Assembly (NCBI GenBank): GCA_030524745.1
Contig: JAUNGC010000012.1
Location: 38,535 to 102,534, forward strand
Direction of reading: 5' to 3'
Length of the DNA stretch: 64,000 bases
DNA from: Eubacteriales bacterium
GTDB taxonomy: Bacteria > Bacillota > Clostridia > Lachnospirales > Lachnospiraceae
Below the pieces are notes generated by a model. That model ran no database searches. It saw only the letters and a list, made by a program, of their open reading frames with translations, and was not told the origin of the DNA. A program made the position numbers and the translations under genes. Below are positions 3 through 35,636 of this stretch, one piece after another (the stretch's first letter is position 1; each line of letters opens with the position of its first letter).

Positions 3-1112
3 GGCGCAGCCATCGCGGCAGGCAGCGCAGACGCGGTTTTACAGAACCTGAGTCAAAGCATGGGAAGAGAACTGGACAGTGAAGGTGTGGATGCCGTGCT
101 TCGGGAGGTTCCCGATGAAAAAGATCTGAAAATGGGCGTGACGGGTACGGCGCTGTTTCAGATCATGATAAATTCCATTCAGGTACCCTACGGCGTTTGG
201 CGCATGAAGCAGTTGAAGCAGTGGTGCGCGTCGGAGACCTGCCGGCAGACATTTCCGACCGTTTACTATGGGACGCGCTCCGGATTCGGCCTGGAAGATG
301 CGGATGATGGCGCGGCGCTGTATGAACAGTTCCGGGAAATGTGGGAAAAAAACAGGAAACGGGCGCTTGCTCTTCTGCATGCCGCGGCGGACTGCGGAAA
401 TATGCGCGCCAATACCCGGCTGGGCCGGTATTACTTAAACGGTATGGACGGCCTGAGAAAGGATGCGCACAATGGCCTGCTGCTTCTGCGGACGGCGGCA
501 TTGGCAGGTGATCCCGAAGCCTGGTACATACTGGCGGGGTGTTTTGAAACGGGATGCGGCAGTTTACTGCCGCAGGATTCGGAGCGTTCAGCCTGGCTGT
601 ACTGTCTGGCGGCGTCTTCCGGCTACGGAGAGGGCGGCGACGGGAATTTAAGGCAGCTGCCTGCGATCAGTCCCAAAAGCATGGAGAGCCTGATGAACTG
701 GTTTACCGAAAATTTTTATGGAGGTCCTGCCATTTTCAATGAACTGGCGCCGGCGGAGGGATTGAATTCCGATTGCTGTCCCGATATCGACGCCCTGCGG
801 ACCTGGCTCTGGATTCCCGGAAATGAGACTGTCTATATGACAGAGTTCGATATGGAGCAAAACGGGGGATTTTGCAGGGCAATTGCGATTGCAGCGACCG
901 GCATTTATGTATTTGACGGTCAGGGACTGCCGTTTCGCCTGCCCTGGAAAAAGTTGAAAAGCTGCAGGATAGACGCGCGGAAAAAAGGGGAGAGAGTTAC
1001 CCTGTTTCTGAATGAAAAGCCTCTTTGCAGCTACAACGCAAAACCGCCTGAACGTGCGGTAGGCGTCATGCTGGTTAAGATCAGAAAGATTCTGAACCCA
1101 CAGAAATCATAG
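3..1112 (+). CDS. Sel1-like repeat protein, 5' end outside the window
   Basis: The frame is open to the left edge, so the true start probably lies upstream; 369 residues are visible and the first internal ATG is at 60. The middle (about residues 120-205) has helical repeats of Sel1/TPR type, with the patterns RLGRYYLNG and AALAGDPEAWYILAGC typical of alpha-solenoid scaffolds. The last 80 residues look beta-rich (IAATGIYVFDG, PFRLPWKKLKSC) and could be a PH-like or other small beta domain. Sel1 repeats normally mediate protein-protein contacts. It is the first visible gene of a one-direction run reaching 11765 and ends 24 nt before the next gene. Its function is unknown; a scaffold or adaptor role for the Hsp70/AAA+ proteins downstream is inference. 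Confidence 0.7.
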   Translation, partial: GAAIAAGSADAVLQNLSQSMGRELDSEGVDAVLREVPDEKDLKMGVTGTALFQIMINSIQVPYGVWRMKQLKQWCASETCRQTFPTVYYGTRSGFGLEDADDGAALYEQFREMWEKNRKRALALLHAAADCGNMRANTRLGRYYLNGMDGLRKDAHNGLLLLRTAALAGDPEAWYILAGCFETGCGSLLPQDSERSAWLYCLAASSGYGEGGDGNLRQLPAISPKSMESLMNWFTENFYGGPAIFNELAPAEGLNSDCCPDIDALRTWLWIPGNETVYMTEFDMEQNGGFCRAIAIAATGIYVFDGQGLPFRLPWKKLKSCRIDARKKGERVTLFLNEKPLCSYNAKPPERAVGVMLVKIRKILNPQKS

Positions 1113-1136
1113 ATATGATACAGGAGGGGATATGTT

Positions 1137-1532
1137 ATGGATAGCAATTTTATGATCGCCACATTAACTGCGGCGGCAGCGGTCGGCGTTTTTGCGGCGG
1201 TGAAGAACGGACGGAAAAAGAAAACAGACTGGGCCGCCATACAAATTGTAGTCGAGGTATTTGGCGCGGCGCAGGCAAAAGACTGGTTTGAAGAAAAAAC
1301 AGGAGGAGAGACGAAGGGCATGCGCCTGCTGACGGCTTATCTGACCCCTGAAATTCTTCGGGAATTGTCTGTCGACAGGGAAATTCCGGATCCGGCGCAC
1401 TATCTTGTGCTGGGCGTTCTGGATGAAAGGAATCAGGTTCTGGACTATCAGTTTGTGAATTTTGAGCGATTGGAAGAAGGCTTCCGGAAGCTGCTGGACG
1501 ATAACGGCGGAAGAGTCGTGATTACCTATTGA
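1137..1532 (+). CDS. Small membrane-anchored protein, family unknown
   Basis: 131 residues. AGGAGGGG sits 7-8 nt before the ATG. Residues 5-22 are hydrophobic and Ala-rich, followed by a basic stretch (KNGRKKK), which suggests a single N-terminal membrane anchor with the rest in the cytoplasm. The C-terminal half has alternating hydrophobic residues (YLVLGVLDERNQVLDYQFV). The same pattern occurs in the protein at 2422-2772 (LLFGIDEKGEIKDIEFV), so the two are probably paralogous subunits. I recognise no family. It lies between the Sel1-like gene and a small helical protein in the same operon. Confidence 0.65.
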   Translation: MDSNFMIATLTAAAAVGVFAAVKNGRKKKTDWAAIQIVVEVFGAAQAKDWFEEKTGGETKGMRLLTAYLTPEILRELSVDREIPDPAHYLVLGVLDERNQVLDYQFVNFERLEEGFRKLLDDNGGRVVITY

Positions 1533-1603
1533 TGAATGCGAAAGAACGGCTGCGGAAGTTTATATTCTGATTTTTATGGAGAAGCAAAAAGGAGGCGGCA
1601 AAT

Positions 1604-1966
1604 ATGGGTACCACATTGGAGGTCGCTGTGCAGTTGGTTTCCGCTGTGATCGAAGAAGGAAAAAAGGAACTGGAATTTATTGAAAACACAGTGGTGCCAA
1701 AGCTGCGGGCAAAAGTTGCCGGATGTCTGAATCGAAGCAATATCGGCCGGGCTGTACTGCAGGTTATCCGGAAGGCCAAAATCAAACTCAAAGAAGACCG
1801 GCTGAAGCTGGCGATACAGGAAATGGTGGACCTGGAAGGCGTTCCGGTTATCACAGTGGATGTGCTGGACGAAATGATGGATGAGATTCAGCTTGAAATT
1901 GAACTGGAATGCGAACAGGTCGGCCCGGATCTGCGGCCGGGTGATATCATTTATGAACAGGTGTAA
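1604..1966 (+). CDS. Small helical protein, family unknown
   Basis: 120 residues, start supported by AAAAAGGAGG 8 nt upstream. It appears almost wholly helical and charged, with no signal peptide or membrane segment. The C-terminus is acidic (DEMMDEIQLEIELE) and ends in a short PGDIIYEQV tail. A 71-nt gap separates it from the gene before and 20 nt from the chosen start of the gene after. I do not recognise a family. Given its size and position it may be a structural or adaptor subunit of the Hsp70/AAA+ cluster; that is inference. Confidence 0.6.
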   Translation: MGTTLEVAVQLVSAVIEEGKKELEFIENTVVPKLRAKVAGCLNRSNIGRAVLQVIRKAKIKLKEDRLKLAIQEMVDLEGVPVITVDVLDEMMDEIQLEIELECEQVGPDLRPGDIIYEQV

Positions 1967-1986
1967 ATTGGTCGGGGAGGATGTCA

Positions 1987-2391
1987 ATGATATACGATTT
2001 TGAGTCGGGCTATTCAGAAAAGACAGAAAAACCTCAAATTGTCAGGAAGGACAGCGCCCTGGATGCGATACAGCGGAAACTCTATGAGGCGTTGGAAAAG
2101 GAGAAATCCGTCAGGGTATTTACGATGCAGGACGCAAAGTTGTATTTTTTGCAGATGCGGGAAAAAAATCCGGCGGCATATAAGTGTCTGGTGCATATTG
2201 AAAGCAGCGGGCAAGGGCATGAGATCATCCAGATTCTGCTGGGGGAAAGCGGAGAACCTTTGTATTCTACCAGCAAGGAAGTTTATGGACGAAAGCTTCG
2301 CGCCGATGCATTGGAACAGGCGGTTGTCGACCGCCTGGCGGGCAGAACCGGCTTTATTATGGAATGCGGGAAGCCGGAAGAAGCTTTGTAA
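1987..2391 (+). CDS. Small soluble protein, family unknown
   Basis: 134 residues from the ATG at 1987. An in-frame ATG at 1981 abuts the GGGGAGG box with no spacing, so 1987, six bases downstream, is the likelier start. The protein is mixed alpha/beta with no membrane segment. A central stretch (IIQILLGESGEPLYS) loosely resembles the hydrophobic-plus-acidic-turn pattern in the proteins at 1137-1532 and 2422-2772, but too weakly to claim homology. Function unknown. Confidence 0.6.
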   Translation: MIYDFESGYSEKTEKPQIVRKDSALDAIQRKLYEALEKEKSVRVFTMQDAKLYFLQMREKNPAAYKCLVHIESSGQGHEIIQILLGESGEPLYSTSKEVYGRKLRADALEQAVVDRLAGRTGFIMECGKPEEAL

Positions 2392-2421
2392 ATTACATTC
2401 AGAGATAAAGGAGAGAAAATT

Positions 2422-2772
2422 ATGGATCCGATTACATGGGGGCTGTTTCTCATCGCAATAGCGGCTGCGGCGTACGGGATTACAAAACTGGTTATTCTTA
2501 CGGCGACCTGGCTTAAAACAAAGCTGAAAAAAATTCTGAGCGGAAAGAAAGAGGTTGTCGGCATTAACGGCGATAAACTCAAAAGCATTCTTGCGGACAT
2601 TGCCGAGGAAACGGAAGCGATTTCCGTAGATGATCTGGATATGCTGCTGTTTGGGATCGACGAGAAGGGTGAAATCAAAGATATCGAATTTGTGGAAGCT
2701 GAAGAGGGGCTGGATTCGGCCGCCGCTGCATTTATGGACAGAAATAATAATATCATCCGCATTTGCAGCTGA
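2422..2772 (+). CDS. Small membrane-anchored protein, related to the one at 1137
   Basis: 116 residues with AAAGGAG upstream. Residues about 4-30 form one hydrophobic segment (WGLFLIAIAAAAYGITKLVI), followed by a Lys-rich stretch and an acidic C-terminal domain. That domain carries LLFGIDEKGEIKDIEFVEAE, which parallels LVLGVLDERNQVLDYQFVNF in the 131-residue protein at 1137-1532, and both have an N-terminal anchor followed by basic residues. I infer a common origin. It ends 14 nt before the AAA+ ATPase gene. Function unknown; a membrane docking subunit is plausible. Confidence 0.6.
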   Translation: MDPITWGLFLIAIAAAAYGITKLVILTATWLKTKLKKILSGKKEVVGINGDKLKSILADIAEETEAISVDDLDMLLFGIDEKGEIKDIEFVEAEEGLDSAAAAFMDRNNNIIRICS

Positions 2773-2786
2773 AAGGAGTGCAGAAT

Positions 2787-4094
2787 ATGAAACTTGCAGT
2801 GCTTTTTTCCGCGTCCAGCCGGCCTTTGTCCGGCGGCAGCGATTGGGAAACGATCCGTGATGCAGTGAAAGAGTGTTTTATTCAGGCATACGGCACAGAT
2901 TCTGATCTGCAAATCGGATTTGGAGAGGCGAATGCGCCCGGGTACGACGTAGTGCTTGCCTTTGACGCATACCCGAATATCGGCTTTAACCCCATCCAGA
3001 AGCGCAACCAGTTCCGGGACGGGGTAGCCCGGCGGCTGTATGAACTGCTGCCCCGGGAATCCGGCTATGCAGGCAGAGTGGCTGTCTGCCTGGAAAAAGA
3101 GATCAGACGTGCGGCCCCGCAGTCTGCCGGTACGGCAAAGCCTTCGCAGGAGCCGGGCCCGCAGGAAGAATACCGCAGTTTCGCCCGGGAATTTACGGCG
3201 GAGGAACCGAAATTTACCTTTGACCGCCTTGTTCTGGCAGAGGATGTGCGACAGCGCATCCTGGAACAGATCTGCATCCTGGAAAACCGGGATAAGCTGT
3301 TTCGGGAATGGGGGCTTGCCGCCATTGCCAGTCCTTCCGTGCTTCTGAATCTTTACGGCGATTCCGGAACCGGCAAATCCATGGCGGCAGAGGCGATAGC
3401 GAACCGCCTGGGCAAAAAGATTCTGCGGGTTTCTTATGCGGACATTGAGAGCAAATATCATGGGGAAGGCCCAAAGCGTCTGAAGGGGATTTTCCTGGCG
3501 GCCACTGAGCAGGACGCCGTGCTGTTCATCGATGAGGCGGACTCCCTGCTTTCCGCGCGCCTGAGCAATGTCACGCAGGGTTCCGAACAGGCGATCAATT
3601 CCATGCGCAGCCAGCTGCTCATCAGCCTGGAAAATCACGACGGTATTGTAATTTTTGCCACGAATCTGATTGAGAATTATGATAAGGCTTTTCGCACCCG
3701 TCTGCTCAGCGTGGAGATGAAGCGTCCGGACGCCGCCCAGCGACGGCAGATCTGGTACAATCATTTGTATCCTGTGGGAGAGGGCCGCATCCGGCTGAAT
3801 ATTCCGCTGGCGCAGGACATAGATCTGGAAAAACTGGCCGGCTTTGATTTTTGCGGCCGGGATATCCGCAACGCGGTGAAGCAGGCGTGTGTCGCGGTAG
3901 TGGTCCGGGGCGGGAATATTGTCTGCCAGGAGGATCTGATGTGCGCCTGTGAACGCATTGAAGCGGAACTAAAGGCATTGGCCCGCGCCTCTGCAAAAGT
4001 CAATCCCGGGATCAGGCCTCTGGCGGAAGAGGAGGAAAATAAGATTACGCAGCAGCTTAAGCAGAAGCTGGCGGGAAAGAAAGCGGAATTATAG
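2787..4094 (+). CDS. AAA+ ATPase, classic AAA clade
   Basis: 435 residues. The ATG at 2787 follows GAAAGGAG; a TTG at 2763 in the same frame is upstream of that box and is rejected. The N-terminal ~125 residues are a domain I do not recognise. The AAA module follows, with Walker A GDSGTGKS (191-198), an aromatic pore-loop-like SKYHGEG, Walker B VLFIDEAD (D249, E250), sensor-1 IFATN, an arginine-finger region DKAFRTRL and a sensor-2-like GRDIRNAVKQA. These are hallmarks of hexameric ATPases that thread or remodel proteins. No protease or second ATPase domain is present, so it is probably an unfoldase or disassembly factor. It is the first of two AAA+ proteins in the operon. Confidence 0.85.
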   Translation: MKLAVLFSASSRPLSGGSDWETIRDAVKECFIQAYGTDSDLQIGFGEANAPGYDVVLAFDAYPNIGFNPIQKRNQFRDGVARRLYELLPRESGYAGRVAVCLEKEIRRAAPQSAGTAKPSQEPGPQEEYRSFAREFTAEEPKFTFDRLVLAEDVRQRILEQICILENRDKLFREWGLAAIASPSVLLNLYGDSGTGKSMAAEAIANRLGKKILRVSYADIESKYHGEGPKRLKGIFLAATEQDAVLFIDEADSLLSARLSNVTQGSEQAINSMRSQLLISLENHDGIVIFATNLIENYDKAFRTRLLSVEMKRPDAAQRRQIWYNHLYPVGEGRIRLNIPLAQDIDLEKLAGFDFCGRDIRNAVKQACVAVVVRGGNIVCQEDLMCACERIEAELKALARASAKVNPGIRPLAEEEENKITQQLKQKLAGKKAEL

Positions 4095-4123
4095 TTTTTC
4101 TTTCGATAAAAGGAGGAAACGGT

Positions 4124-5281
4124 ATGATGGAATTTACAGAGGAGCAAAGAACTCTGTTGATAGAACAGGCCCGGCAATGTCTGGAACAGGCAGAACAGGG
4201 ACAATCAACCCGCGATATTATGGCCCGGATTTATATGGACGGACTGGATCATAAGACGTTGGAACAGGGACAGATGATGGCGGAAGCCATTCTGGAAGGT
4301 GTAAACGCATTTGACAGCAATTTCGCCGCGGCGAAGGATGATCTGGAACGCTGGCTGGACAAAACCCTTTCCAAAATGGCGGCCGGCAAATCGCCCCGGG
4401 AGCGCTGTGCCTGTTGGTTAAAGGTTACCGCCGCTGTCAATGCGGTATCGGCTTTGGATAATTTGCAGCTTGACGAAGCGGAGAAAGACAGGATACTGGC
4501 AGAATTGGATGCGATTACGATCAGCGAAGAGGAAGCCACCCCTGAACTGGAGTCAGAGCTTTATAAGGGGGTAAAAGCTGCTCTGGAAAACTCCGGCGTG
4601 ATGTTCTGTGCGCTGGTTGGCCAGCAGGAGTTATTTCGGGGGATGGAAAATATAAGCGACGCCGCTGAGGTGCTGCTGGATTTCGGCAGCCGGGAGATCA
4701 ATTTCCGCGCGGTGGCATCCATGATCGCTTATACCAATGTCAAGAACGGTACTTTTGATAATATTCCGGCGGACATGAAACCGGAACAGATCACCGTCAT
4801 GGTATGCGCGCAGATCGAACAGATGCGGATAATGGATGCGGTCAGAAGAAAGCAAATGACGATGGAAACCGCAGCGCTGCTTTTGAAAATTCTGGGCGCT
4901 GTCTCTATGACCGTGCTGGCGTTAGAGACTTCAGCGCTGATCGGCATATTGGCGATGAAGCTGCAGTTTGGCATTCTTTCCATTCCGATCGCCCTGTTTA
5001 TGGGATTGGCTTTCGGCCATTTTCTGACCGGCGGTTTTGAAGAATGGTGCAGAGCGAGCGACGAAGCGGTGGATTTCTGCAGTGTTCCTGTTCAGGCGCT
5101 GGTTGTTGCGGCGGACAATCTGGCCGACTATATGCGGGAAAATGTCTGGCCGGAGTTTTGCCGGATCGTCAGTTCCGTAGGGGACCGTCTGAAGCAGTAT
5201 GCCGCAGGAATTGCCGGCAGAAAGACAGAACCGATGGAAGAAAGCGCTGTCGGGATGACATTGGAGCCGATTCCGGATTAA
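4124..5281 (+). CDS. Helical protein with C-terminal membrane hairpin, unknown
   Basis: 385 residues. AAAAGGAGG lies 7 nt before the first of two adjacent ATGs. Residues 1-240 are helical and charged with no recognised motif. Two hydrophobic stretches follow at about 248-268 (AALLLKILGAVSMTVLALET) and 272-298 (IPIALFMGLAFGHFLTGG) with almost no loop between them, so they would form a membrane hairpin. The last ~80 residues are again helical. The Hsp70-like protein at 7657 also ends with a tight double membrane segment followed by a helical tail, which suggests both reach the same membrane surface. Family and function unknown. Confidence 0.65.
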   Translation: MMEFTEEQRTLLIEQARQCLEQAEQGQSTRDIMARIYMDGLDHKTLEQGQMMAEAILEGVNAFDSNFAAAKDDLERWLDKTLSKMAAGKSPRERCACWLKVTAAVNAVSALDNLQLDEAEKDRILAELDAITISEEEATPELESELYKGVKAALENSGVMFCALVGQQELFRGMENISDAAEVLLDFGSREINFRAVASMIAYTNVKNGTFDNIPADMKPEQITVMVCAQIEQMRIMDAVRRKQMTMETAALLLKILGAVSMTVLALETSALIGILAMKLQFGILSIPIALFMGLAFGHFLTGGFEEWCRASDEAVDFCSVPVQALVVAADNLADYMRENVWPEFCRIVSSVGDRLKQYAAGIAGRKTEPMEESAVGMTLEPIPD

Positions 5282-5305
5282 GTTGTGACAAAAAGGAAGA
5301 TGGAT

Positions 5306-6703
5306 ATGCAAAAACTCCATATTTTAAAAATAAACGGCCATGCGGTGCTGAATTTTCTGGATCTGCAGGAACATTTCTCGCCCTGGGCGATCTGGGAACA
5401 GCAGGAAGCTTACGCTTCCTTTGTACGGGTGCACAGTTTGCCTCTGACGGTCTGGCAGGTCAGAGAAAACGGCGTGCTCCAGCCGCTTCAATATGCGGGT
5501 AAGGAATTCTGGATGGATTTACTGGAAAAAAATCTGTGCGGCGCGGCATTTCCTGCCGGAAGAGACGCGTCGGAATGTCTGGATGCTTTGCTCCGCGGGA
5601 AATACAAAGATGAACTTCTCAAAGAGAACGCATCCGGACTTCTGGAGCAGGAACGTCTGGCGCAGCGGATTGATGAGAAACTTCGGTATATTATGTCCGG
5701 CGCCAGACTGAAGGAGACTCCGGAGGATATCAAAACGGCCATTTTGCTGCTGGCAATCTGTCAATTGGCTGAGATGGATGCTGAAAAGCAGGATTTCCAG
5801 AGATGGACAGAGACGCTGCAGAGCGATACAACAAAAACTGCGTCCGGGGAGAAGGAGGAAAAAAGTCAGGATCATTCTGTCTCCGGGACCGCAAGCCGGA
5901 CGGAGACAGCAGCGGCGGAGCAGGACATTAATGATTTCCCGCAGGCGGACAGAGTTGCCCTGAAGGCGCGGACGCAGCCCTATTGCTATTGGTATCATAC
6001 CGAAGACAGGCTGACCGGTAAAAAGATCAGGACTGTTCGGATAGAGGCGATATCCGGCGAACAGGGCGACGGGCGGGTCACGCTTTTGTTTTACCGTCCG
6101 GACGGAAGTCAGGCGCAGAAAGTGGAATTACTGGCGGGAGAATACCGGGACTGCACGGTATCCGGGGGCAGGCTGATCGGTTTTCTTCCGACTATGAGCA
6201 TCAGCGAAACGTTGTGTATGGCGCGCAGTAACTACCATTCTTCGGAAATCCGAATTATTCCCCGCAACGCCAGCGAGTGGATTCTTAATGCAGACGCGGA
6301 AACCGCCCGCAAGATCACCAGCTTTTCTGCCGGCGACAATACCAGAGACGGATTCTTATATATCCGAAATGGCAGGCTGATAAAAGCTTACTATAAGCCT
6401 GCTGAAAACTACACCATCCGCCAGAAGCTGGATTTGATCGATGACCGGCTTGTGGAGGTTCGTCTGATACCGGAGGGCTATATCCTGCTGACAGAGTATG
6501 GCGAGGTTATTTCAAGCGATCCTGAATGGAACGGCCGTACCGGCGTGATAACCCTGTATCCCCGGAATAAAGCGGCGTGGCCGGCCAGTCTGGAAGCTGA
6601 TCCGGAAAATATGCGGGAGTTTGCCCGGGATGAGAGCGGCGGGAATTTTGCGGTTCGGACTGCGGACGACAGGGTGCTTTGCTGCTGGCAGAAAGGAGAG
6701 TAA
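5306..6703 (+). CDS. Beta-rich protein of the Hsp70/AAA+ cluster, unknown
   Basis: 465 residues from the ATG at 5306, seven bases after AAGGAA; in-frame GTG 5285 and ATG 5300 are less well placed. The N-terminal ~190 residues are helical, followed by an acidic, low-complexity linker (about 170-205, rich in Glu, Ser and Thr). The rest is beta-rich with repeated short strands such as GFLYIRNGRLIKAYY and EGYILLTEYGEVISSD, resembling blades or sandwiches, perhaps a propeller. No catalytic motif, signal peptide or membrane segment is seen. It ends one base before the next start codon. Function unknown. Confidence 0.6.
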   Translation: MQKLHILKINGHAVLNFLDLQEHFSPWAIWEQQEAYASFVRVHSLPLTVWQVRENGVLQPLQYAGKEFWMDLLEKNLCGAAFPAGRDASECLDALLRGKYKDELLKENASGLLEQERLAQRIDEKLRYIMSGARLKETPEDIKTAILLLAICQLAEMDAEKQDFQRWTETLQSDTTKTASGEKEEKSQDHSVSGTASRTETAAAEQDINDFPQADRVALKARTQPYCYWYHTEDRLTGKKIRTVRIEAISGEQGDGRVTLLFYRPDGSQAQKVELLAGEYRDCTVSGGRLIGFLPTMSISETLCMARSNYHSSEIRIIPRNASEWILNADAETARKITSFSAGDNTRDGFLYIRNGRLIKAYYKPAENYTIRQKLDLIDDRLVEVRLIPEGYILLTEYGEVISSDPEWNGRTGVITLYPRNKAAWPASLEADPENMREFARDESGGNFAVRTADDRVLCCWQKGE

Positions 6704-6704
6704 T

Positions 6705-7616
6705 ATGGAGAAATATTCATTTCGGCATCAGGGGGATCAGGGGCAGAGAGGGCAGAATGTTTCGTCCGGAGCCGTAACGGCTTCCTCTCAATTCAATCAG
6801 AGAGATGTTTTGCTGAGACGTAAGAAAGAAGTCTCCAAAATGATAAAAGGATTGGATGCAGCCCAGGAAAAAAACATGGCGGATTACAGGTATGCGTTGA
6901 GAAGCTGCAGTGCGCAGTGGAAAGAACTGCGTTGCTGTCAGCCGGAGTATAAAAAACAAAATCTGGTGCTGGAAGCTTATTACCAGAGAGGAAAGCTGAT
7001 GGATTATCTGGAAGAGGTCGTGAAATACGCTTATGCGGACGTCCGTCCCGCAGATACGGCGGAAAAGCTGGCTGTGAAGGGTTACAGCAATTACCTTTTC
7101 GTTCTGAAAAGCCTCTTTGATGGACTGCGGGAAAAATATGACGCTTTTGAAGAACCCGGGGAACAGGAAGATAAAACGCCGATTCAAAGCTTTCTGATGA
7201 ATGAGTGCAGAAGCAATCCTTTTTATGACGAGTGGTTCGCGCTCACAGACAGGATACGGGAGTTGCTTGAAAAGGGGAAAATACGTCCCTTAAGCGCCCA
7301 GGAGTGCGCGCCGGTTTTCGGAGAACTGGATGTGACGGAATATACGCTGAGACGGGATCACGAAAAACTGACCGTATATCTTCGGGAAAAACAGCGCGCC
7401 ATCCGTAACAGGATCGTAAAAATGAAGCAGGAGAGCGAACGCGGAAAAGCGCTGTATGAAGCCCTTTTACAGGTATTGACGCCGGAATTGTTTGATAAGA
7501 TGGATCCGGATACGCTCGAAGCGGAGCAAATGAGCATAGAACAGATCCGGGACCAATACCGTGCTCTTGCAGACCGGATCAATGAAACAATTCTGCTCCG
7601 GTTTCCCAGAGCATAA
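6705..7616 (+). CDS. Helical, coiled-coil-prone protein, unknown
   Basis: 303 residues. GAAAGGAGAG precedes the ATG at 6705, which is one base after the previous stop codon, so translation is probably coupled. The same frame continues upstream but lacks a supported start. The first ~35 residues are polar and probably disordered; the rest is strongly charged and helical (for example REKQRAIRNRIVKMKQE). It has no membrane segment or recognised catalytic motif. It sits directly before the Hsp70-like gene, the position often taken by an Hsp70 partner, but it has no J-domain HPD motif. Confidence 0.6.
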   Translation: MEKYSFRHQGDQGQRGQNVSSGAVTASSQFNQRDVLLRRKKEVSKMIKGLDAAQEKNMADYRYALRSCSAQWKELRCCQPEYKKQNLVLEAYYQRGKLMDYLEEVVKYAYADVRPADTAEKLAVKGYSNYLFVLKSLFDGLREKYDAFEEPGEQEDKTPIQSFLMNECRSNPFYDEWFALTDRIRELLEKGKIRPLSAQECAPVFGELDVTEYTLRRDHEKLTVYLREKQRAIRNRIVKMKQESERGKALYEALLQVLTPELFDKMDPDTLEAEQMSIEQIRDQYRALADRINETILLRFPRA

Positions 7617-7656
7617 CGTCGGAAAGCACAGATAGAAAAGGCAGGAGGTAATTATC

Positions 7657-9639
7657 ATGCAAAAAACATTGGGGCTGGATTTTGGACACTGCGAAGTAGC
7701 CATGTCTTTGACAATGGAGGGAAAGAAACCGGAAAATCTGATCCTTGACGGCAATAAAGAAAAAGTGATACCTGCGCAGATTGCTTTGACAGATGCTCAG
7801 ATTCATATGTTGGCTGAGGGAAAATGGGACTGCCAGACGTTGGAAAAACTGGGCGAGATCGCAATTGGTAATGAGGCTGATCCGAAAAACGATGAGAATA
7901 TGGATTCCTGCACCTTTATGTACTTCAAAAAAGCCCCGGCGTTTTTTCAGGAGATTTTTGAGAACAAGGTGCCGCGCGGCGCGTTGATGGCGGCTTATCT
8001 TTATCAGTTGATGAAACAGGTATTTGACTATAATCCTGATTATCTCGATCCGGAAGACCGCGGGAATATCAGCCTGGTGGTTGGATGTCCCACAACACGG
8101 GAATGGACCGGCGAGGAGGAAATGAGACAATATAAGGATCTGATCTGCAGCGCCGTCGGGATTTCCAACGTCAGCATTATTCCGGAGTCCCGTGCCGCCA
8201 TGTTCAGCAGCATTGAAAGCACCCAGTCCTGCATTTCGGCCGGCAACGGCGCGGTGGTTTTCGACTTTGGTTCCTCCACTGCCGACTGTACTTACATGCT
8301 TGCCGGACGCCGGTGCATTGAATATAGCTGGCGTTTGGGCGCGCAGGAAATTGAGTCCCAGATGGCAAACGTTGCATTTGAAGGGCAGAAACCCTCGCTT
8401 CGTTCCCGGATTTATGTCACCAGCCAGTTGCGCAGACAGAAAGAATTATATTATAACGGTTCCTTCGGTCCGAAAGGACAGCGCCTTTTTTATGATACGG
8501 TAGATCGGGACGGACAGGATATCGAGGCATATATCCGTGTCAATGACGAGCAGATGGGGCAGGTCGTCAACGGAGAGGAACATGAGATCGGGATTCTCTG
8601 TGACAGCGATCAATTCCGGGCAGGCACCTGGATGCAGCTATGCCGTGAATTTTTCCGGACGGCAAAGGAGATCATGGACGAGGAAGAACTTCCCTGCGCC
8701 AATATCGTTCTTACCGGCGGAGCCAGCAAGATGGCGTTTGTCCGGAATTTGTGCCGCGAAATTTTCGGGGAGAACGTTAAGATCCATGTGGAAAAAAATC
8801 CGAGTTTCAGCGTCGCCAACGGCTTAGGGTGGGTCAGCGCCATTGATGCGCGGGTGCCCGCCATAGCGGGCAAGACAGAGACGGAAATTTTGTCAAACCG
8901 TAATATTGCGGTGGAAAGTCTGGTGCAGAACATCGCTGCGGAACTGCAGAAGGTGGTGGCGGAAGTTATTTCCCAGACAGCAGATAAATGGGCGGCAGAA
9001 CCGGGTGAACATTCCGTGTCCGAACTGATTGAAATGGCGAAGGCGGAGATGGATACCGGGGAGAGAAGAGAGCAAATTAAGAAGATCATAGACAGTCAAC
9101 TCAATTCCTGGCGGAATTCTTTCCAGGAGGCGGTGCAGAAATGCGTGAATGCAAACAGCGGCGAACTGATGACGGATAAGATTGCTGAGGGCGTCGTTTT
9201 GACGAAGGATGTCTGGAAATATATCAGCGACGATTCGCTTTACGGCAGCGTCAGCCTGGACGACCTTTTAAAAGGCATTAATATGAACGGTCTGCTGAAC
9301 AAGACGCTTCAGGTGGTAGCCGGATACCTCACGATGTGCATCCTTCTTGTGGCCCTGCCGGGTATCGGTCTCTTTGCCTTGCTGGCCGCCTGGCTTGCGG
9401 GAAAACTCACAGGCGACTTTTTAAATCGCCGGAGTATCACGCAGCTTAGGGATCAGGCGCACCGCGAAAGCATGAAGCCCAAGATCAAGAGTTCCGTCAG
9501 CAACGGGAAAGTCCTGAAAGAACTGACGAAATCCGTTTCCGAGCAGTTTAAAGAAATGGAGAAAAACTATTCTGAAATGGTCGGCAATACTGTTCGGATC
9601 GCTTATGAGGTCGTGACCCTGAAGCATTTTCAAATATGA
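7657..9639 (+). CDS. Hsp70/actin-like ATPase with C-terminal membrane hairpin
   Basis: 660 residues, start supported by GCAGGAGG. The N-terminal ~385 residues match the Hsp70/actin ATPase fold: phosphate-1 loop LGLDFGHCEV near residue 5, phosphate-2 VVFDFGSSTAD around 200-210 and the adenosine-binding NIVLTGGASKM at 349-359. No DnaK-type beta-sandwich substrate domain or EEVD-like tail is visible. Instead there is a long helical region (about 400-545), a hydrophobic pair at about 550-585 (GYLTMCILLVALPGIGLFAL) and a charged helical tail. This predicts an Hsp70-like ATPase tethered to the membrane. It overlaps no gene and lies 11 nt before the second AAA+ gene. Its role is unknown; ATP-driven chaperone or filament-like activity is inferred from the fold. 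Confidence 0.8.
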   Translation: MQKTLGLDFGHCEVAMSLTMEGKKPENLILDGNKEKVIPAQIALTDAQIHMLAEGKWDCQTLEKLGEIAIGNEADPKNDENMDSCTFMYFKKAPAFFQEIFENKVPRGALMAAYLYQLMKQVFDYNPDYLDPEDRGNISLVVGCPTTREWTGEEEMRQYKDLICSAVGISNVSIIPESRAAMFSSIESTQSCISAGNGAVVFDFGSSTADCTYMLAGRRCIEYSWRLGAQEIESQMANVAFEGQKPSLRSRIYVTSQLRRQKELYYNGSFGPKGQRLFYDTVDRDGQDIEAYIRVNDEQMGQVVNGEEHEIGILCDSDQFRAGTWMQLCREFFRTAKEIMDEEELPCANIVLTGGASKMAFVRNLCREIFGENVKIHVEKNPSFSVANGLGWVSAIDARVPAIAGKTETEILSNRNIAVESLVQNIAAELQKVVAEVISQTADKWAAEPGEHSVSELIEMAKAEMDTGERREQIKKIIDSQLNSWRNSFQEAVQKCVNANSGELMTDKIAEGVVLTKDVWKYISDDSLYGSVSLDDLLKGINMNGLLNKTLQVVAGYLTMCILLVALPGIGLFALLAAWLAGKLTGDFLNRRSITQLRDQAHRESMKPKIKSSVSNGKVLKELTKSVSEQFKEMEKNYSEMVGNTVRIAYEVVTLKHFQI

Positions 9640-9650
9640 GGTGAGAGTTT

Positions 9651-11462
9651 ATGGCACAAAATGTGGTGGAAAAGGTGCTGCGGCGCTGTGAAAGCGCCCT
9701 GCGTGCCCGCATTCCGATCATTTATATTAAGACGGATTCTGACAGGCTGATTCAGCAGATCGTGGATTCCGACCGGCTGGTGCTGCGCATCCGCAAATTC
9801 GGCGCCATGGGAAAACGTCCGGAACGTGAATACCGGACGGATGAAAACTATGTCAGAGAAAAGCCGGCGAATCATCTGACGGAGGACATTGGTCTGAAAA
9901 AGTCCTGGCTGCTCTGGGATTATCCGCGGATTTGTACATACAAGGTGCCGAAGGAGTGGAAAAATCAGGAAGGCTATGAAGCTTATATTATGGCCCATGA
10001 GGATCCGTGCAGCCGGCAATATGAGATTTTGCAGAACAGCGTAGTTATTCTCTATTCCTCCCAGGTACAACTGTCACCCATGATGCAGGCATATACAGAG
10101 ATCATCGAGGTGGATTATCCCGGCGCGGAAGAAATCCGCAACCTGATTCTGAATATGGCGAAGCTTTTCGGTGACGATTATCTGGAAATAGACGAGATGT
10201 ATCAGAGCCGTCTTTGCAGCGAATTTTCCGGACTGACCACGGATGAGATCGACGTTACCATGCGCAGAATCCTTTCTGTGCCCACGCAGACGCCGTCGGC
10301 TTCTCCGCTGCTTGACGAGGCGGCAGTGATGGACATCATCCGCCGGCGGAAGGAGCAGAAGATGGAAACCAGCGTGCTGGAACTGTGCAAACAGCCCGGC
10401 AGCAGCATCGGCGGGATGGATAAACTCCGCAATTGGCTCAGCGCACAGAAATCCGCGCTGGAAAACGCGGAAATACTGCGCCGCAGGAAAGGCATTCTTC
10501 CGCCCAAGGGCGTGCTGCTGTGCGGTATTCCGGGCTGCGGAAAGTCCGAAGCCGCCAAGCTTACCGCCCAGGAATTCGGCCTGCCGCTTCTGAAAATGGA
10601 CATGGGAAGGCTGATGGATAAATATCAGGGAGAATCAGAGCGGAATATGACGGAAGCCCTGCGCATGGCGGAAGCTATGTCTCCGTGCGTGTTGTGGATT
10701 GATGAATTGGAAAAGGGGTTTGGCGGAGCCGGAACCGACAATGACTCTTCCTCTTTCAAGCGGATGTTTGCCACAATGCTGGGCTGGATGCAGGACAATA
10801 CCAGGCCGGTATTCATTTTTGCAACGGCAAATAACATTGGAGGACTGCCGAAAGAGTTTTTCAGGAGCGGCCGGTTTGACGCTCTTTTTGCGGTGTATCT
10901 TCCGCTGATGCAGGAGTGTGTGCAGATTTTTAAAGCATGTATGAACCGTTATAAATTGGAGAGCGGAGAATCCCTGTTTGAACCCGGTTGCGATGACGAT
11001 GACCTTTTGGAGTATGTGATCGATACCTGCCTGGTATCCCCGAAACGTCCCCGTATTGTTGTCGGGGCGGATATTCAGAAGATCGTGAATATTACTGTCC
11101 GTGGGCTGGGCGGCCAGGAACGGATCAGCCGGAAGCAGTGGCGAACCGCTTTGATCCGCACATGCAGCGATCCTGATGTAGGGGTATACGGGGACGGGGA
11201 AGAAAATGTGGACAGCATTGCCGTCAGTTATTGCAGAATGCTGCGAAAGGGTTTGCAGTCAACCTCCGATCGGGTCTTGTTTTCCACAGAGGATTATCAG
11301 CCCCGGAATGCGAAAGATAAGAAGAATATTCTGGTGAAGTCTGACTCCGACAGCTTTACCAATGCCTATGACAGAGCGGTGTATGATATGCTGCTGGAAC
11401 GGATCAACGAGATGGCCCCGGAAGTGGAGGAAATGGAACGCAGACAGGTGCTGATGAGGTGA
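9651..11462 (+). CDS. AAA+ ATPase, FtsH/Cdc48-like module
   Basis: 603 residues, start at ATG 9651 after GAGGTGAG. The N-terminal ~230 residues look like a RecA/AAA-related fold without a clear Walker A (IIYIKTDSDRLIQQI, SVVILYSSQVQLSP). The AAA module has Walker A GIPGCGKS (292-299), pore-loop region LMDKYQGESERN, Walker B VLWIDELEKG (D351, E352), sensor-1 IFATAN and the FFRSGRFD arginine-finger segment. A C-terminal ~150-residue extension follows. The domain order resembles ATPases with a degenerate D1 and active D2. It is unlike the AAA+ protein at 2787, so the operon encodes two separate motors. Substrate unknown. Confidence 0.85.
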   Translation: MAQNVVEKVLRRCESALRARIPIIYIKTDSDRLIQQIVDSDRLVLRIRKFGAMGKRPEREYRTDENYVREKPANHLTEDIGLKKSWLLWDYPRICTYKVPKEWKNQEGYEAYIMAHEDPCSRQYEILQNSVVILYSSQVQLSPMMQAYTEIIEVDYPGAEEIRNLILNMAKLFGDDYLEIDEMYQSRLCSEFSGLTTDEIDVTMRRILSVPTQTPSASPLLDEAAVMDIIRRRKEQKMETSVLELCKQPGSSIGGMDKLRNWLSAQKSALENAEILRRRKGILPPKGVLLCGIPGCGKSEAAKLTAQEFGLPLLKMDMGRLMDKYQGESERNMTEALRMAEAMSPCVLWIDELEKGFGGAGTDNDSSSFKRMFATMLGWMQDNTRPVFIFATANNIGGLPKEFFRSGRFDALFAVYLPLMQECVQIFKACMNRYKLESGESLFEPGCDDDDLLEYVIDTCLVSPKRPRIVVGADIQKIVNITVRGLGGQERISRKQWRTALIRTCSDPDVGVYGDGEENVDSIAVSYCRMLRKGLQSTSDRVLFSTEDYQPRNAKDKKNILVKSDSDSFTNAYDRAVYDMLLERINEMAPEVEEMERRQVLMR

Positions 11463-11480
11463 TAATATTATGTTAGTGAA

Positions 11481-11765
11481 ATGAAAAATCTGAGCCCCAA
11501 GGTGCGCAGGTGGGTCATGGACTGGTATTTCGGCGCCGGATATCCTGCAGATATCATAGAAGGCGTAACCGTGCAAATGCTTGTGGAAGAAGCAGGGTTA
11601 AAGCCGATGAATGCCTTTATTGCGATGGATTGGCTGATGAAGGATCCGGAAGCGGCGAAGTTTGCGCTGACCCATGTGAAATCCTCTGCAATAGAGGAGG
11701 CGGAAAACACAACGGACATACTCCCGGAAGACTCCGTTCCGGATGAGGCGATTGAGGATGTTTGA
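11481..11765 (+). CDS. Short protein ending the Hsp70/AAA+ operon
   Basis: 94 residues. The ATG at 11481 overlaps (ATGA) the stop of a four-codon open frame that starts at 11470, and the only good ribosome-binding site (GAGGTGAT, 11455-11462) precedes 11470. Initiation here may therefore be by coupling to that minicistron. Residues 1-65 look helical (RRWVMDWYFGAGYPADI) and the tail is acidic. No family recognised. It is the last gene before the terminator at 11878. Confidence 0.5.
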   Translation: MKNLSPKVRRWVMDWYFGAGYPADIIEGVTVQMLVEEAGLKPMNAFIAMDWLMKDPEAAKFALTHVKSSAIEEAENTTDILPEDSVPDEAIEDV

Positions 11766-11877
11766 CAGGGGTTTTGCCGATGATCAGAGGAATTCTACGC
11801 GGCGGGCAAGTATGATATTGAACCGAAGAAAAGATTCATTGACCAAAAGGAACATAAACAGATGCAGTTACATCAGG

Positions 11878-11901
11878 AAGGCCGCGTTAGCGGTCTTTTT
11901 T
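11878..11901 (+). terminator. Rho-independent terminator of the Hsp70/AAA+ operon
   Basis: An 8-bp stem AAGGCCGC/GCGGTCTT (one G-U pair) with a GTTA loop is followed by a T run. It lies about 110 nt after the last gene. The stretch 11766-12097 otherwise holds a promoter candidate at 11911 and a short start-less open frame (11783-11905) that I do not count as a gene. Confidence 0.75.
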
Positions 11902-11910
11902 AATTAAAAC

Positions 11911-11938
11911 TTGTATTTTGCCCGGAAACTGATATACT
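11911..11938 (+). promoter_or_regulatory. Promoter candidate for the Rpn-like gene
   Basis: TTGTAT and TATACT are separated by 16 nt, just after the terminator and about 160 nt before the gene at 12098. Confidence 0.45.
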
Positions 11939-12097
11939 GATTTTAATACCTGTTTTACAGGATGGAATCTGAATCTTTGGAAATTCTGTTACGCCGGAAA
12001 TCATGACATGATCTAATTCCGCGCTTCGTTGATCTTCACCGGGCATTCACCCGTATTTCCAATTCGTTCAGGAAAAATTCAATAAGGAGGGCGATGA

Positions 12098-13099
12098 ATG
12101 GGGAAGAAGAACAATGTTCTTGCCTGGTATCTGAACAAGCCGTCGGTATTTGCGGACTTTTGTAATGGCTGTTTATATGAAGGAGAGAAAACGGTGCTGC
12201 CGGAAGAACTGGCGGAAGTTCAAAAGGCAAATGACGAGGTAATGCGTGACCGGAACGGTAGGCTGTTGAAAAAGGGGCGCGAGAGGGATGTCGTAAAACT
12301 GCTGCGTAAAAATCATCATTTTGTGATGATTGCAGTGGAAAATCAGGACAAGATCAATTACTGTATGCCGCTGCGGTGTATGGAGTACGATGTTGCGGAT
12401 TTCGTAAAACAGCTTCGGAGACTTAAGAACCGCCATAAGGAGGAGGGTGGTCTGGAAACGGCGGAGGAATATTTATCGGGAATGAAAGAGACGGACAGGC
12501 TGATCCCGATTGTGACGATTCTTTTTTATCATGGAAAAGGAAAATGGAACGCGGCCATGCGGTTGAAAGATATGCTGGATCCGATTGGTATGGACCAGAG
12601 ACTGCGGCGGCTTGCGACGGATTACCGGATGAGGGTAGTGAATCTGGAGGATCTGAAAGAAGAATACTTTGAAACGGGCCTACGGGAACTGATCGGAATG
12701 ATGAAGCGCAGGGAAAGTAAGGAAGAAATGAGGAAGTATTATGAGAATAACAGGGAACGTTTTTGTAATATGGACGAAGATACTTACGATTTACTTTGTA
12801 CCATGCTGGATCTCAGGTCGTTGTCGGGGAAAAAGAAAATATACAGAGATGCAGAGAAGGAGACGGTGGATATGTGTAAAGCATTTGACGATTTGGTAAA
12901 AGAAAGCGAAATGCGTGGAGAGGAGCGCGGAAAAAGGCTTGGAGAAAAGCAAGGGGAAAAACGAGGGGAAAAGCGTGGTGAGGAGAAACTCGCCAGCCTG
13001 ATAGAAAAATTAGTGCAGGACGGCAGAATGGCCGATATTTTAGCTGTATCCCAAAATGCGCAGAAGCGTAAAAAAATGTATCAGGAATATGGAATCTGA
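12098..13099 (+). CDS. Rpn-family (PD-(D/E)XK) nuclease/transposase-like protein
   Basis: 333 residues; AAGGAGG lies 7 nt before the ATG. The N-terminal part fits the Rpn/YhgA-like family: a conserved opening (LNKPSVFADFCNGCLYEG), the core HHFVMIAVENQDKINYCMPL, and then LIPIVTILFYHGKG, where such proteins carry the nuclease-fold strands. Members are recombination-promoting nucleases or putative transposases; here the catalytic residues cannot be confirmed by eye. The C-terminus has a charged tandem pattern (GEKQGEKRGEKRGEEK) and a short helical end, as is usual for this family. It is a single gene with its own promoter candidate. A second member is at 26002. Confidence 0.75.
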   Translation: MGKKNNVLAWYLNKPSVFADFCNGCLYEGEKTVLPEELAEVQKANDEVMRDRNGRLLKKGRERDVVKLLRKNHHFVMIAVENQDKINYCMPLRCMEYDVADFVKQLRRLKNRHKEEGGLETAEEYLSGMKETDRLIPIVTILFYHGKGKWNAAMRLKDMLDPIGMDQRLRRLATDYRMRVVNLEDLKEEYFETGLRELIGMMKRRESKEEMRKYYENNRERFCNMDEDTYDLLCTMLDLRSLSGKKKIYRDAEKETVDMCKAFDDLVKESEMRGEERGKRLGEKQGEKRGEKRGEEKLASLIEKLVQDGRMADILAVSQNAQKRKKMYQEYGI

Positions 13100-31109: not shown

Positions 31110-32360
31110 ATGAAGAAAATAACGGCGATCGTACTGGGAGCGGGTTCCCGGGGACATGCTTATGCGGATTACAGCTTAAGCTGTCCGGAAGAACTGGAAA
31201 TTGTCGGCGTTGCGGAACCGGACGAAAAGAAAAGGACGCTTTTTGCCGACCAATATCATATACCGGTGGAAAGATGTTTTGCCGACTGGCAGGAGATTTT
31301 ACAGCAGCCTCAAATGGCGGACGCCGCTTTTGTGTGCACGCTGGATCATATGCATACGCAGCCTGCGATTCAGGCTTTAAAAAAAGGGTATCATGTGCTG
31401 TTGGAAAAGCCGATGAGCAATAAAAAAGAGGAATGTCTGGCGATTGCGCAGGCGGCAGAGGAATCCGGGAAAGTGCTGACGGTTTGTCATGTGTTGCGCT
31501 ATACTTCCTTTTATCAGACCATCAAAAAGCTGATTGAAACGGATGCCGTAGGGGAAGTCGTTACCGTCGATCAGATTGAAAACGTGGGCTATTGGCATCA
31601 GGCGCACAGCTTTGTCAGGGGCAACTGGCGCAACAGCGACCAGACCAGCATCATGATATTGCAGAAAAGCTGTCATGATTTGGACATTATTTCCTGGCTG
31701 ATCGATAAGCCCTGTACATGGGTATCCAGTTTCGGGCGTTTAAGCCATTTTACAAAGGAAAACTGGCCGCAGGGAGCGCCGGATAACTGTATGAAGGGCT
31801 GTCCTTACAGCGAAGAATGCCTTTACTATGCGCCGAAGATTTATCTGACCGGAAAGAAAACCTGGCCGGTGGACGTCATCACGACGGATCTGACGGAAGA
31901 AGGCATAAAAAAAGCGCTGCAGGAAGGACCTTACGGCAGATGCGTCTATGCCTGTGATAATAATGTGGTGGATCATCAGGTAGTGAACCTGGAATATGAG
32001 GGCGGCGCGACGGCCACCTTTACGATGACTGCATTTGGCGCGGATATTACAAGGCAGTTAAAGATCATGGGAACAAAAGGACAGATTATGGGCGATCTGG
32101 ATAAGGAGCAAATCTGTCTGCAGCGGTTCGGTGAAAAGGAGCCGGAGCAGATTGTGCCGGAACGGGGAATTGCCGATCAGTTCGGACACGGCGGCGGAGA
32201 CTATGGGATCGTGAAAAACTTTATCGGACTGGTGAATGGAAACGGCGATAACCTGACGAGTGCAAAAGCATCGCTGCAAAGTCATCTGATGTGCTTTGCG
32301 GCAGAGCAGTCCAGACTGGAGCATCGGGCGATCCCGATGAGCGAGATGGAAGGGGAATGA
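31110..32360 (+). CDS. Gfo/Idh/MocA-family oxidoreductase
   Basis: 416 residues from ATG 31110 (GGAGAGG upstream; GTG 31107 is closer to the box and less likely). The N-terminal Rossmann domain has VLGAGSRGHAYADY and GVAEPDEKKR; the NAD(P) enzymes' active-site helix has HVLLEKPMSNKKEE. The C-terminal domain has the catalytic-type GGGDYG. A cysteine cluster (NCMKGCPYSEECLYYAP) is a subgroup feature, perhaps metal-binding or structural. The family oxidises or reduces sugars, inositols or related compounds with NAD(P). Substrate unknown. Confidence 0.9.
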   Translation: MKKITAIVLGAGSRGHAYADYSLSCPEELEIVGVAEPDEKKRTLFADQYHIPVERCFADWQEILQQPQMADAAFVCTLDHMHTQPAIQALKKGYHVLLEKPMSNKKEECLAIAQAAEESGKVLTVCHVLRYTSFYQTIKKLIETDAVGEVVTVDQIENVGYWHQAHSFVRGNWRNSDQTSIMILQKSCHDLDIISWLIDKPCTWVSSFGRLSHFTKENWPQGAPDNCMKGCPYSEECLYYAPKIYLTGKKTWPVDVITTDLTEEGIKKALQEGPYGRCVYACDNNVVDHQVVNLEYEGGATATFTMTAFGADITRQLKIMGTKGQIMGDLDKEQICLQRFGEKEPEQIVPERGIADQFGHGGGDYGIVKNFIGLVNGNGDNLTSAKASLQSHLMCFAAEQSRLEHRAIPMSEMEGE

Positions 32361-32408
32361 AAAAATGCCGCCCTTTTGCAGGGCAGACGAAAATGGAATA
32401 GAGAGAAG

Positions 32409-32455
32409 CAGCGTAAGGCCGCGTTCCGGATGAAAAGGAGCGCGGCCTTTCGCTG
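32409..32455. terminator. Hairpin between convergent genes, likely bidirectional terminator
   Basis: CAGCG and AAGGCCGCG pair with CGCGGCCTT and CGCTG across a 17-nt loop. It lies between the oxidoreductase and the convergent XRE regulator gene. The flanking T tract is weak on the plus strand. Confidence 0.6.
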
Positions 32456-32458
32456 TAT

Positions 32459-32752: not shown

Positions 32753-32925
32753 ATCTGCTCGTCCTTTCTGTTCTCTATTATTTTTTCTTATATGTTTTAA
32801 ACTATTCCTGCATCTCCACTCATTGTAAAGAAAAAAACGCGTCTTATGGTGTTAAAAAAACACTTATAGTTGAAAATGGGAAGTAAAAATAATATAATGA
32901 AAAAAGAAAAATTTTAAAAAATTTC

Positions 32926-32958: not shown

Positions 32959-32984
32959 GGTAAAGGGGGCAGAAAGAAGCGGTT

Positions 32985-35603: not shown

Positions 35604-35636
35604 TGCAGTGTGATGCTGTTGTGTATTTTAAGGCCG

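What the first reader, a model, noticed from the sequence alone, without database searches (positions are those of the whole stretch)
3..11765. Twelve-gene Hsp70/AAA+ operon of unknown function
Seen: twelve same-direction genes with short gaps encode an Hsp70/actin-like ATPase with a membrane hairpin, two distinct AAA+ motors, a Sel1-like scaffold, two related membrane-anchored small proteins and several families I do not recognise. No toxin, nuclease, phage or conjugation gene is present. Known: Hsp70 and AAA+ proteins cooperate in disaggregation and membrane-protein handling. Inference: this is a membrane-associated chaperone/remodelling machine, perhaps for stress, secretion or defence, that I cannot match to any named system.
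Basis: partly seen in the sequence, partly recalled or inferred. Interest (0 to 1): 0.85.

Follow-up and report, generated by a model that had tools for sequence, protein, structure and literature searches.

The report
Mobile membrane Hsp70, AAA+ and protease operon
A run of bacterial genes encodes an unusual Hsp70 that seems to lack the usual peptide-gripping half, together with membrane proteins, ATP-driven motors and a zinc protease; related sets occur in two bacterial phyla, some on DNA that looks mobile, and match no named system we could find, so what they do is unknown but testable.

Summary
The operon starts upstream of the window: the "Sel1-like scaffold" is the 3' part of an M48 zinc peptidase, preceded by two M48 paralogues without HExxH. 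Direct repeats (349 bp, 92.6%) bracket about 18.3 kb that also holds macro-HTH, vWA, radical-SAM and Cys-peptide genes. A scan with the Hsp70 alone found 23 loci in Clostridia and Bacteroidales (two are the query's own rows); a hexameric-motor gene (AAA+ or HerA) accompanies it in 21 of 23, a SprT-like zincin in 14, the small last gene in 12. Profiles place the ATPase with Hsp70 nucleotide-binding domains, catalytic columns kept; no substrate-binding domain is matched. Four zincin-seeded loci lack Hsp70: small gene in 3, HerA in 2, once beside a P-loop gene. I read a modular, mobile, membrane-associated nucleotide switch coupled to an AAA+/HerA motor and zinc protease, serving envelope proteostasis or conflict with invaders. 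Tested defining features of IetAS, CoCoNuT, GAP1-N2 HSP70, MoxR-vWA and DnaK-ClpB are not met.

The parts
3..1112 (+). C-terminal part of a 550-aa M48 zinc peptidase with a Sel1 repeat (whole gene G000:C63:37994-39646)
   Evidence: M48 32 bits vs cut-off 20.3, Sel1 22.7 vs 30.7; HELAH; two HExxH-less paralogues just upstream, outside the window
1137..1532 (+). 131-aa protein with one predicted N-terminal TM segment (g4)
   Evidence: no Pfam match over cut-off; hydropathy 1.88
1604..1966 (+). 120-aa soluble protein (g5)
   Evidence: no Pfam match over cut-off; no relative in the 30 loci searched
1981..2391 (+). 136-aa soluble protein (g6)
   Evidence: no Pfam match; no relative in the 30 loci searched
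2422..2772 (+). 116-aa protein with one predicted N-terminal TM segment (g7); relation to g4 not significant
2787..4094 (+). AAA1, class AAA ATPase; an orthologue (53% over 279 aa) in another genome lies beside P-loop GTPase-like and HerA genes
   Evidence: Pfam AAA 87.5 bits; PADLOC IetA 3.3e-24
4124..5281 (+). g9, helical protein with a two-segment membrane hairpin
   Evidence: 12-member family, predicted TM in 12 of 12; in 9 of 23 Hsp70-seeded loci
5285..6703 (+). g10, soluble protein of unknown fold
   Evidence: 6-member family; a Bacteroidales counterpart shares an 86-column stretch (hhalign probability 94.8%); no PDB match better than E 0.12
6705..7616 (+). g11, alpha-helical protein
   Evidence: 4-member family; predicted TM in 3 of 4 members, not in the window's
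7657..9639 (+). Hsp70-type ATPase: nucleotide-binding domain plus C-terminal region with a predicted membrane segment; no substrate-binding domain matched
9651..11462 (+). AAA2, class AAA ATPase with an N-terminal region that I recall as Ycf46-like
   Evidence: Pfam AAA 94.5 bits; phrog_8638 3.8e-71; CDC48/AFG2-type chains in PDB; in the neighbourhood of Hsp70 in 11 of 23 loci
11481..11765 (+). g14, 94-aa soluble protein, the small last gene
   Evidence: 14-member family; in 12 of 23 Hsp70-seeded loci
11789..12136 (+). right copy of the direct repeat that brackets the island; left copy at G000:C63:31400-31748
   Evidence: 323 of 349 bases identical
12098..13099 (+). Rpn/YhgA-type (Transposase_31) gene at the right edge; a shortened copy lies at the left edge
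   Evidence: Pfam 31.1 bits vs cut-off 21; second repeat block 81% over 338 bases

Best explanation
A horizontally spread, membrane-associated remodelling machine. Inferred mechanism: the Hsp70-type nucleotide-binding domain, with no substrate-binding domain found and a hydrophobic C-terminal region, acts as an ATP/ADP switch at the membrane together with two-TM partners (g9 here; a '2TM' protein in Bacteroidales). In one nucleotide state it recruits or licenses a hexameric motor (AAA2 here, HerA in other loci), which pulls on or takes apart a membrane or membrane-bound target, and a zinc peptidase (the M48 here, a SprT-like zincin elsewhere) cuts or clears it, with g14 as a small adaptor. Transcription is probably set by the linked regulator (an HTH-like protein in Clostridia, a sigma-70-like gene in some Bacteroidales). 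Shown: gene content, recurrence, active-site motifs, predicted TM segments, flanking repeats. Inferred: physical coupling, substrate, direction of signalling and purpose.
For: Seeding with Hsp70 alone, the neighbours recur: motor gene in 21 of 23 loci (AAA2 11, HerA 12, both in 2; the two without are near contig ends), SprT-like zincin 14, g14 12, 2TM 17 of 17 Bacteroidales, HTH-like 6 of 6 clostridial loci. Seeding with the zincin, 4 of the 10 matching genomes examined: g14 beside it in 3, HerA in 2, AAA2 in 1, Hsp70 in 0. Seeding with g9: the two matching genomes other than G000 carry AAA2 beside g9. Hsp70 NBD profile: best PDB hit 2.9e-24, profile columns 9-369 of 629; D8, G10, E177, D203, G205, D210, G354, G355 in 24 of 24, T208 in 23, K91 in 20. 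Zincin: HExxH invariant in 14 of 14 aligned. Pairwise distances of partners correlate with those of Hsp70 (Mantel r 0.66-0.94, n 10-17). Predicted TM: g9 12 of 12, 2TM 19 of 24, Hsp70 20 of 35.
Against: Predicted TM is missing in 15 of 35 Hsp70 sequences. The window's unit has no SprT-like zincin next to it; the M48 as its stand-in is a guess, and the M48 proteins have no predicted TM. Correlated distances also follow from shared ancestry; for AAA2 within Bacteroidales the correlation is weak (r 0.38, p 0.02, n 6). The HTH-like family also occurs in 16 of 41 genomes, most without this operon. Family profiles were trained on these same loci, and the AAA2 profile is broad: it takes in AAA1, and L068's member is nearer AAA1. 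The GrpE resemblance of the 2TM protein was tested and not supported.
Confidence: 0.5

Rival explanations
1. A conflict (anti-phage or anti-element) system: the nucleotide switch sets a threshold, and the membrane proteins or the peptidase act as effectors that stop or kill an infected cell.
For: Sparse, accessory distribution (Hsp70 4 of 150 family, 16 of 344 order, 2 of 348 phylum genomes; g9 3 of 392); repeats around the unit; the HerA variant on two IMG/VR contigs; AAA1's orthologue and one zincin-g14 pair beside P-loop GTPase-like and HerA genes, recalling the GTPase-, HSP70- and peptidase-based conflict systems of PMC7159879.
Against: No nuclease, toxin or known effector among the products; one member of g9 has only a weak SLATT_4 hit (E 0.0038); most loci were not examined for defence neighbours; the direct repeat is a large duplication rather than a known insertion signature; GC of the island equals that of the flanks.
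Confidence: 0.3
2. A maturation or export complex for a modified peptide: the radical-SAM enzyme and Cys peptide upstream are the product line, the M48 trio removes or handles the leader, the Hsp70/AAA+ part exports it.
For: Radical-SAM gene and 39-aa Cys peptide lie inside the bracketed island just before the M48 genes; unrelated radical-SAM gene plus Cys-rich small ORF also in L053 and L063.
Against: Found in only 2 of 23 other loci; neither of the two peptides tested matches an NCBIfam family; a strong hairpin separates peptide and M48 genes; no transporter in the operon.
Confidence: 0.08
3. The actin-fold protein is a filament former of the FtsA/MreB/ParM kind, and the operon a membrane cytoskeleton.
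For: Single-sequence hits to MreB (23.3 bits, under cut-off 27) and FtsA; MreB matched by 10 of 24 members.
Against: The family profile's best 60 PDB matches are all Hsp70s; HSP70 also matches 10 of 24 members with a far better best E (2e-11 against 5.9e-6).
Confidence: 0.06
4. Unrelated genes that happen to lie together.
For: g4-g7 have no relatives in the 30 loci searched; gene order varies.
Against: Recurrence of g9, g10, Hsp70, AAA2 and g14 in other genera and, for four of these families, in another phylum.
Confidence: 0.02

Closest known systems
GAP1-N2 GTPase-centric conflict systems, HSP70 theme (Kaur et al. 2020, PMC7159879; section 29 read, other passages seen)
   Same: HSP70 genes, some without the peptide-binding domain; membrane links; Firmicutes among the hosts
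   Different: Theirs centre on a GTPase and GAP1 with GrpE; here no GTPase family was hit, GrpE homology was not supported, and AAA2/HerA plus a zinc peptidase and g9/g14 are the partners
CoCoNuT McrBC systems with Hsp70-like NBD/SBD and SpoVK- or HerA-type extensions (PMC11090510; section 10 read, passages seen)
   Same: Hsp70-like protein, CDC48-like AAA+, HerA-like ATPase, vWA genes nearby
   Different: No McrB GTPase, McrC or HEPN here; their CnuD was judged poor at ATP hydrolysis, here the active-site columns are kept
IetAS (PADLOC/NCBIfam IetA)
   Same: AAA1 resembles IetA (PADLOC 3.3e-24; NCBIfam 76.5 bits, far under its cut-off 510)
   Different: No subtilisin partner
DnaK-ClpB type disaggregase (recalled)
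   Same: An Hsp70-type ATPase beside an AAA+ motor
   Different: No SBD matched; single class AAA domain of CDC48 type instead of Clp/Hsp100

Membership tests
Hsp70 | Nucleotide-binding domain with conserved catalytic residues | tested here: met
   Family profile hits Hsp70 NBDs at 2.9e-24; catalytic columns kept, K91 in 20 of 24 (DnaK equivalences recalled). The window protein alone does not hit Pfam HSP70
Hsp70 | Substrate-binding domain after the NBD | tested here: not met
   Profile match ends at column 369 of 629 also for full-length chains (e.g. 6asy, residues 7-378 of 606). Sequence-level test only
Class AAA ATPases | AAA domain over the curated cut-off | tested here: met
   87.5 and 94.5 bits vs 21.2
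M48 peptidases | Domain over cut-off and HExxH | tested here: met
   550-aa protein only: 32 vs 20.3 bits, HELAH; its two paralogues lack HExxH
IetAS defence system | IetS subtilisin beside IetA | tested here: not met
   No subtilase in Pfam over the twelve and no IetS in PADLOC for the 10 scanned
CoCoNuT / McrBC | McrB GTPase and McrC | tested here: not met
   No McrB/McrC family among the Pfam hits of the twelve
GAP1-N2 GTPase systems | TRAFAC GTPase | tested here: not met
   No GTPase family hit among the twelve; GAP1 itself has no model that I searched for by name
GAP1-N2 GTPase systems | GrpE beside HSP70 | tested here: not met
   hhalign of the 2TM family with 12 GrpE sequences: probability 1.4% at best; the window has no 2TM gene
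MoxR-vWA ternary systems | MoxR AAA+ ATPase with vWA co-chaperone | tested here: not met
   AAA1/AAA2 are of CDC48/AFG2 type; a vWA-like gene lies in the island (21.2 bits, under cut-off 26.4)
DnaK-ClpB | Clp/Hsp100 AAA+ and DnaK with SBD | tested here: not met
PRTRC | PRTRC protein D over cut-off | tested here: not met
   19 bits vs 214.8
Anti-phage defence in general | Protection against phage | not testable with these tools
   needs a plaque assay

The most novel reading that the evidence does not exclude
An undescribed, mobile family of prokaryotic conflict systems in which an SBD-less membrane Hsp70 takes the place that a GTPase holds in sister loci: an interchangeable NTPase switch (Hsp70 or GTPase) licenses a hexameric motor (AAA2 or HerA) and a zincin-g14 pair at the membrane.
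Probability: 0.3. Interest if true: 0.82.

Novelty: new variant of a known kind. Interest (0 to 1): 0.62.

Why it matters
If the reading is right, Hsp70 has a branch that dropped its substrate-binding half and became a membrane switch for AAA+/HerA motors and a zinc protease, in a gene set spread across two phyla of common gut and rumen bacteria. It would link two bodies of work, Hsp70 proteostasis and NTPase-gated conflict systems, and four families without a curated match (g9, g10, g14, 2TM) would gain a context. Cultured hosts are among the hits (by record title: Clostridium sp. chh4-2, Phocaeicola faecicola AGMB03916, Bacteroides caecigallinarum ET12), so deletion tests are practical.

Tried and rejected
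GrpE: I first took the 2TM protein for GrpE because of its C-terminal ending; profile comparison gave 1.4% probability at best, so I dropped the name (where several control ORFs were wrong, then with 12 GrpE sequences; the same comparison of two halves of the GrpE set gave 100%). g11 as the 2TM protein's counterpart: hhalign 0.2%. g10's N-terminus in L100: probability 34%, not used. Empty site: nine congeners have the right-hand symporter but neither the Rpn gene nor the left-hand genes in the 7 kb taken, apart from weak partial hits (XRE 60 aa in one, MATE-like in two), so no clean empty site was shown. Composition: island GC 0.51-0.52 against 0.50-0.51 outside, no foreign signal. Promoters: 11 found against 14.0 expected, nothing to build on. 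Plasmids: the two Hsp70 queries each hit one Calothrix record only, whose annotated neighbours name no motor or zincin. AAA2 itself is no marker of the system: 1473 plasmid and 132 phage records hold some relative. PDB profile searches of g9, g10, g14, zincin, 2TM and the HTH-like family gave nothing convincing. Literature: nine searches found no description of this gene set; PMC7159879 and PMC11090510 were read in passages and one section each, PMC7824862 and PMC8195603 in passages, all others as listings; only open-access papers are held.

Caveats on my own steps: two of the 23 loci (L051, L066) are the contigs that supplied two of the three query rows. The genome samples overlap, and G000 is counted in each. 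Of the 10 genomes with a zincin match I examined 4.
Full report
Where it is. The window is G000:C63:38535-102534 of an unnamed 63-contig genome. Twelve ORFs on the + strand fill 3-11765. Reading the contig upstream shows that the first one is cut by the window's edge: whole, it is a 550-aa protein with an M48 peptidase domain and HELAH, and one Sel1 repeat under its cut-off. Two paralogues of 280 and 266 aa, similar to it at E about 1e-7 to 3e-8 but without HExxH, come before it. Further upstream on the same strand lie a 39-aa peptide with two Cys, a radical-SAM/SPASM/PqqD protein, a vWA-like protein (under its Pfam cut-off) and a macro-domain protein with an HTH-like C-terminus.

An island. 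A stretch of 349 bp left of these genes (L002:11400-11748) recurs at window 11789-12136 with 323 identical bases, and a second block of the Rpn gene matches at 81% over 338 bases. Between the copies lie about 18.3 kb (C63 about 32057-50322), holding everything named above plus the twelve genes. I take this as one acquired unit, an inference: GC does not differ from the flanks and nine congeners gave no clean empty site. In the genus the AAA2 search found no close counterpart: the best match outside the operon has E 4.5e-17 at 27% identity, in G000 itself (13 genomes).

The proteins. AAA1 and AAA2 are class AAA ATPases, AAA2 nearest CDC48/AFG2-type chains in the PDB and phrog_8638 (3.8e-71). 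The Hsp70-type protein alone gives only weak MreB/FtsA hits. A profile of 24 family members hits 140 PDB sequences at E up to 0.1; the 60 shown are all Hsp70s, best 2.9e-24, over profile columns 9-369 of 629, and full-length Hsp70 chains are matched over the NBD only. Per member, Pfam HSP70 matches 10 of 24 (best 2e-11), MreB 10 (5.9e-6), FtsA 7. Catalytic columns are kept in 24 of 24, except T208 (23) and K91 (20). A simple hydropathy scan predicts a TM segment in the window's Hsp70 (560-578), two in g9, one each in g4 and g7; across families Hsp70 20 of 35, g9 12 of 12, 2TM 19 of 24, zincin 6 of 15.

Conservation. Hsp70-only scans found matches in 4 of 150 family genomes, 16 of 344 order genomes and 2 of 348 phylum genomes, G000 included. 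A scan of the species-level genome collection gave 23 loci out of 255 candidate stretches: 6 clostridial, 17 Bacteroidales by title and taxonomy. Two of the 23 are the contigs of two query rows. Iterated profiles and the order table give: motor gene in 21 (AAA2 11, HerA 12, both in L065 and L068), zincin 14, g14 12, g9 9, g10 5, g11 2, 2TM 17 of 17 Bacteroidales and 0 of 6 clostridial, HTH-like 6 of 6 clostridial and 0 of 17, sigma-70-like 7 (one on the other strand), M48 in 1. L051 and L060, without a motor, are near contig ends. The Lachnospiraceae locus L048 reads HTH-like, g9, g10, g11, Hsp70, AAA2, zincin, g14, Hsp70. The AAA2 profile is broad, and L068's member is nearer AAA1. Distances between partners correlate with those of Hsp70 (Mantel r 0.66 for AAA2, 0.78 zincin, 0.94 2TM, 0.84 HerA, 0.86 g9, 0.80 g14), which shared descent alone could also give.

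Seeds other than Hsp70. The g9 profile matched 3 of 392 order genomes: G000; G468, whose second contig L099 has AAA2 with three g9-family genes; and G840, whose L100 has two AAA2-type genes with a g9-type gene between and no Hsp70 in 17.8 kb. The zincin profile matched 10 of 150 family genomes. In the 4 examined, g14 is adjacent in 3 (E 4e-11 to 8e-4), HerA present in 2, AAA2 in 1, Hsp70 in none; one HerA locus has an 862-aa P-loop gene in front. G000 itself has a second g14-zincin pair at a contig end (L152). AAA1's orthologue (53%) lies among P-loop GTPase-like genes and a HerA-like gene. The pieces thus look modular: Hsp70 or a P-loop NTPase, with AAA2 or HerA, with zincin and g14. Two IMG/VR contigs carry 2TM, Hsp70, HerA, zincin, g14 in this order, with one further ORF between in L126.

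Peptide genes. Radical-SAM plus a Cys-rich small ORF also occur in L053 and L063, 2 of 23; their radical-SAM proteins are related to each other and not detectably to the window genome's. The best NCBIfam matches are far under cut-off and the two peptides tested match nothing. I treat this as an optional cargo.

What it is and how it may work. Best reading (0.5): a membrane-associated nucleotide switch of Hsp70 type that works with an AAA+/HerA motor and a zinc peptidase. Purpose is open between envelope proteostasis and conflict with invaders (0.3 as a separate rival). The closest published kinds are the NTPase- and chaperone-gated conflict systems of PMC7159879 and the CoCoNuTs of PMC11090510; tested defining features of both are not met. 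Hence 'new variant of a known kind', the kind being NTPase/chaperone-gated multi-gene systems, with the specific gene set undescribed in what I could search (nine paper searches).

Limits. The HTH-like family is not specific (16 of 41 genomes). No experiment bears on function.

Noticed in passing
L002:16270-16400 (G000:C63:36270-36400), just upstream of the window: Strong RNA hairpin between the Cys peptide gene and the first M48 gene (-62.6 kcal/mol, z -5.5), without a T-run; perhaps an attenuator or processing site.
   Followed up: partly
L053:16459-16707 and L063:17626-17841: Cys-rich small ORFs beside radical-SAM genes inside or next to Hsp70-HerA loci; unmatched in NCBIfam for the one tested.
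   Followed up: partly
L152:7666-9488 (G000:C52, contig end): A second g14-zincin pair in the window's own genome, zincin with HEGRH and a long low-complexity tail.
   Followed up: partly
L137 (G112:C57:15001-35000): Run of P-loop GTPase-like genes, several ending in glycine-rich hydrophobic tails, with an AAA1 orthologue and a HerA-like gene.
   Followed up: partly
L053, L055, L063: MORN-repeat-like genes directly behind HerA in these loci.
   Followed up: no
L128 (Calothrix plasmid AP018209.1): A lone relative of the Hsp70 on a cyanobacterial plasmid between two integrase genes.
   Followed up: no
window 2283-3764, - strand: 493-aa open frame antisense to AAA1; looks like a shadow of the coding strand, not tested.
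   Followed up: no
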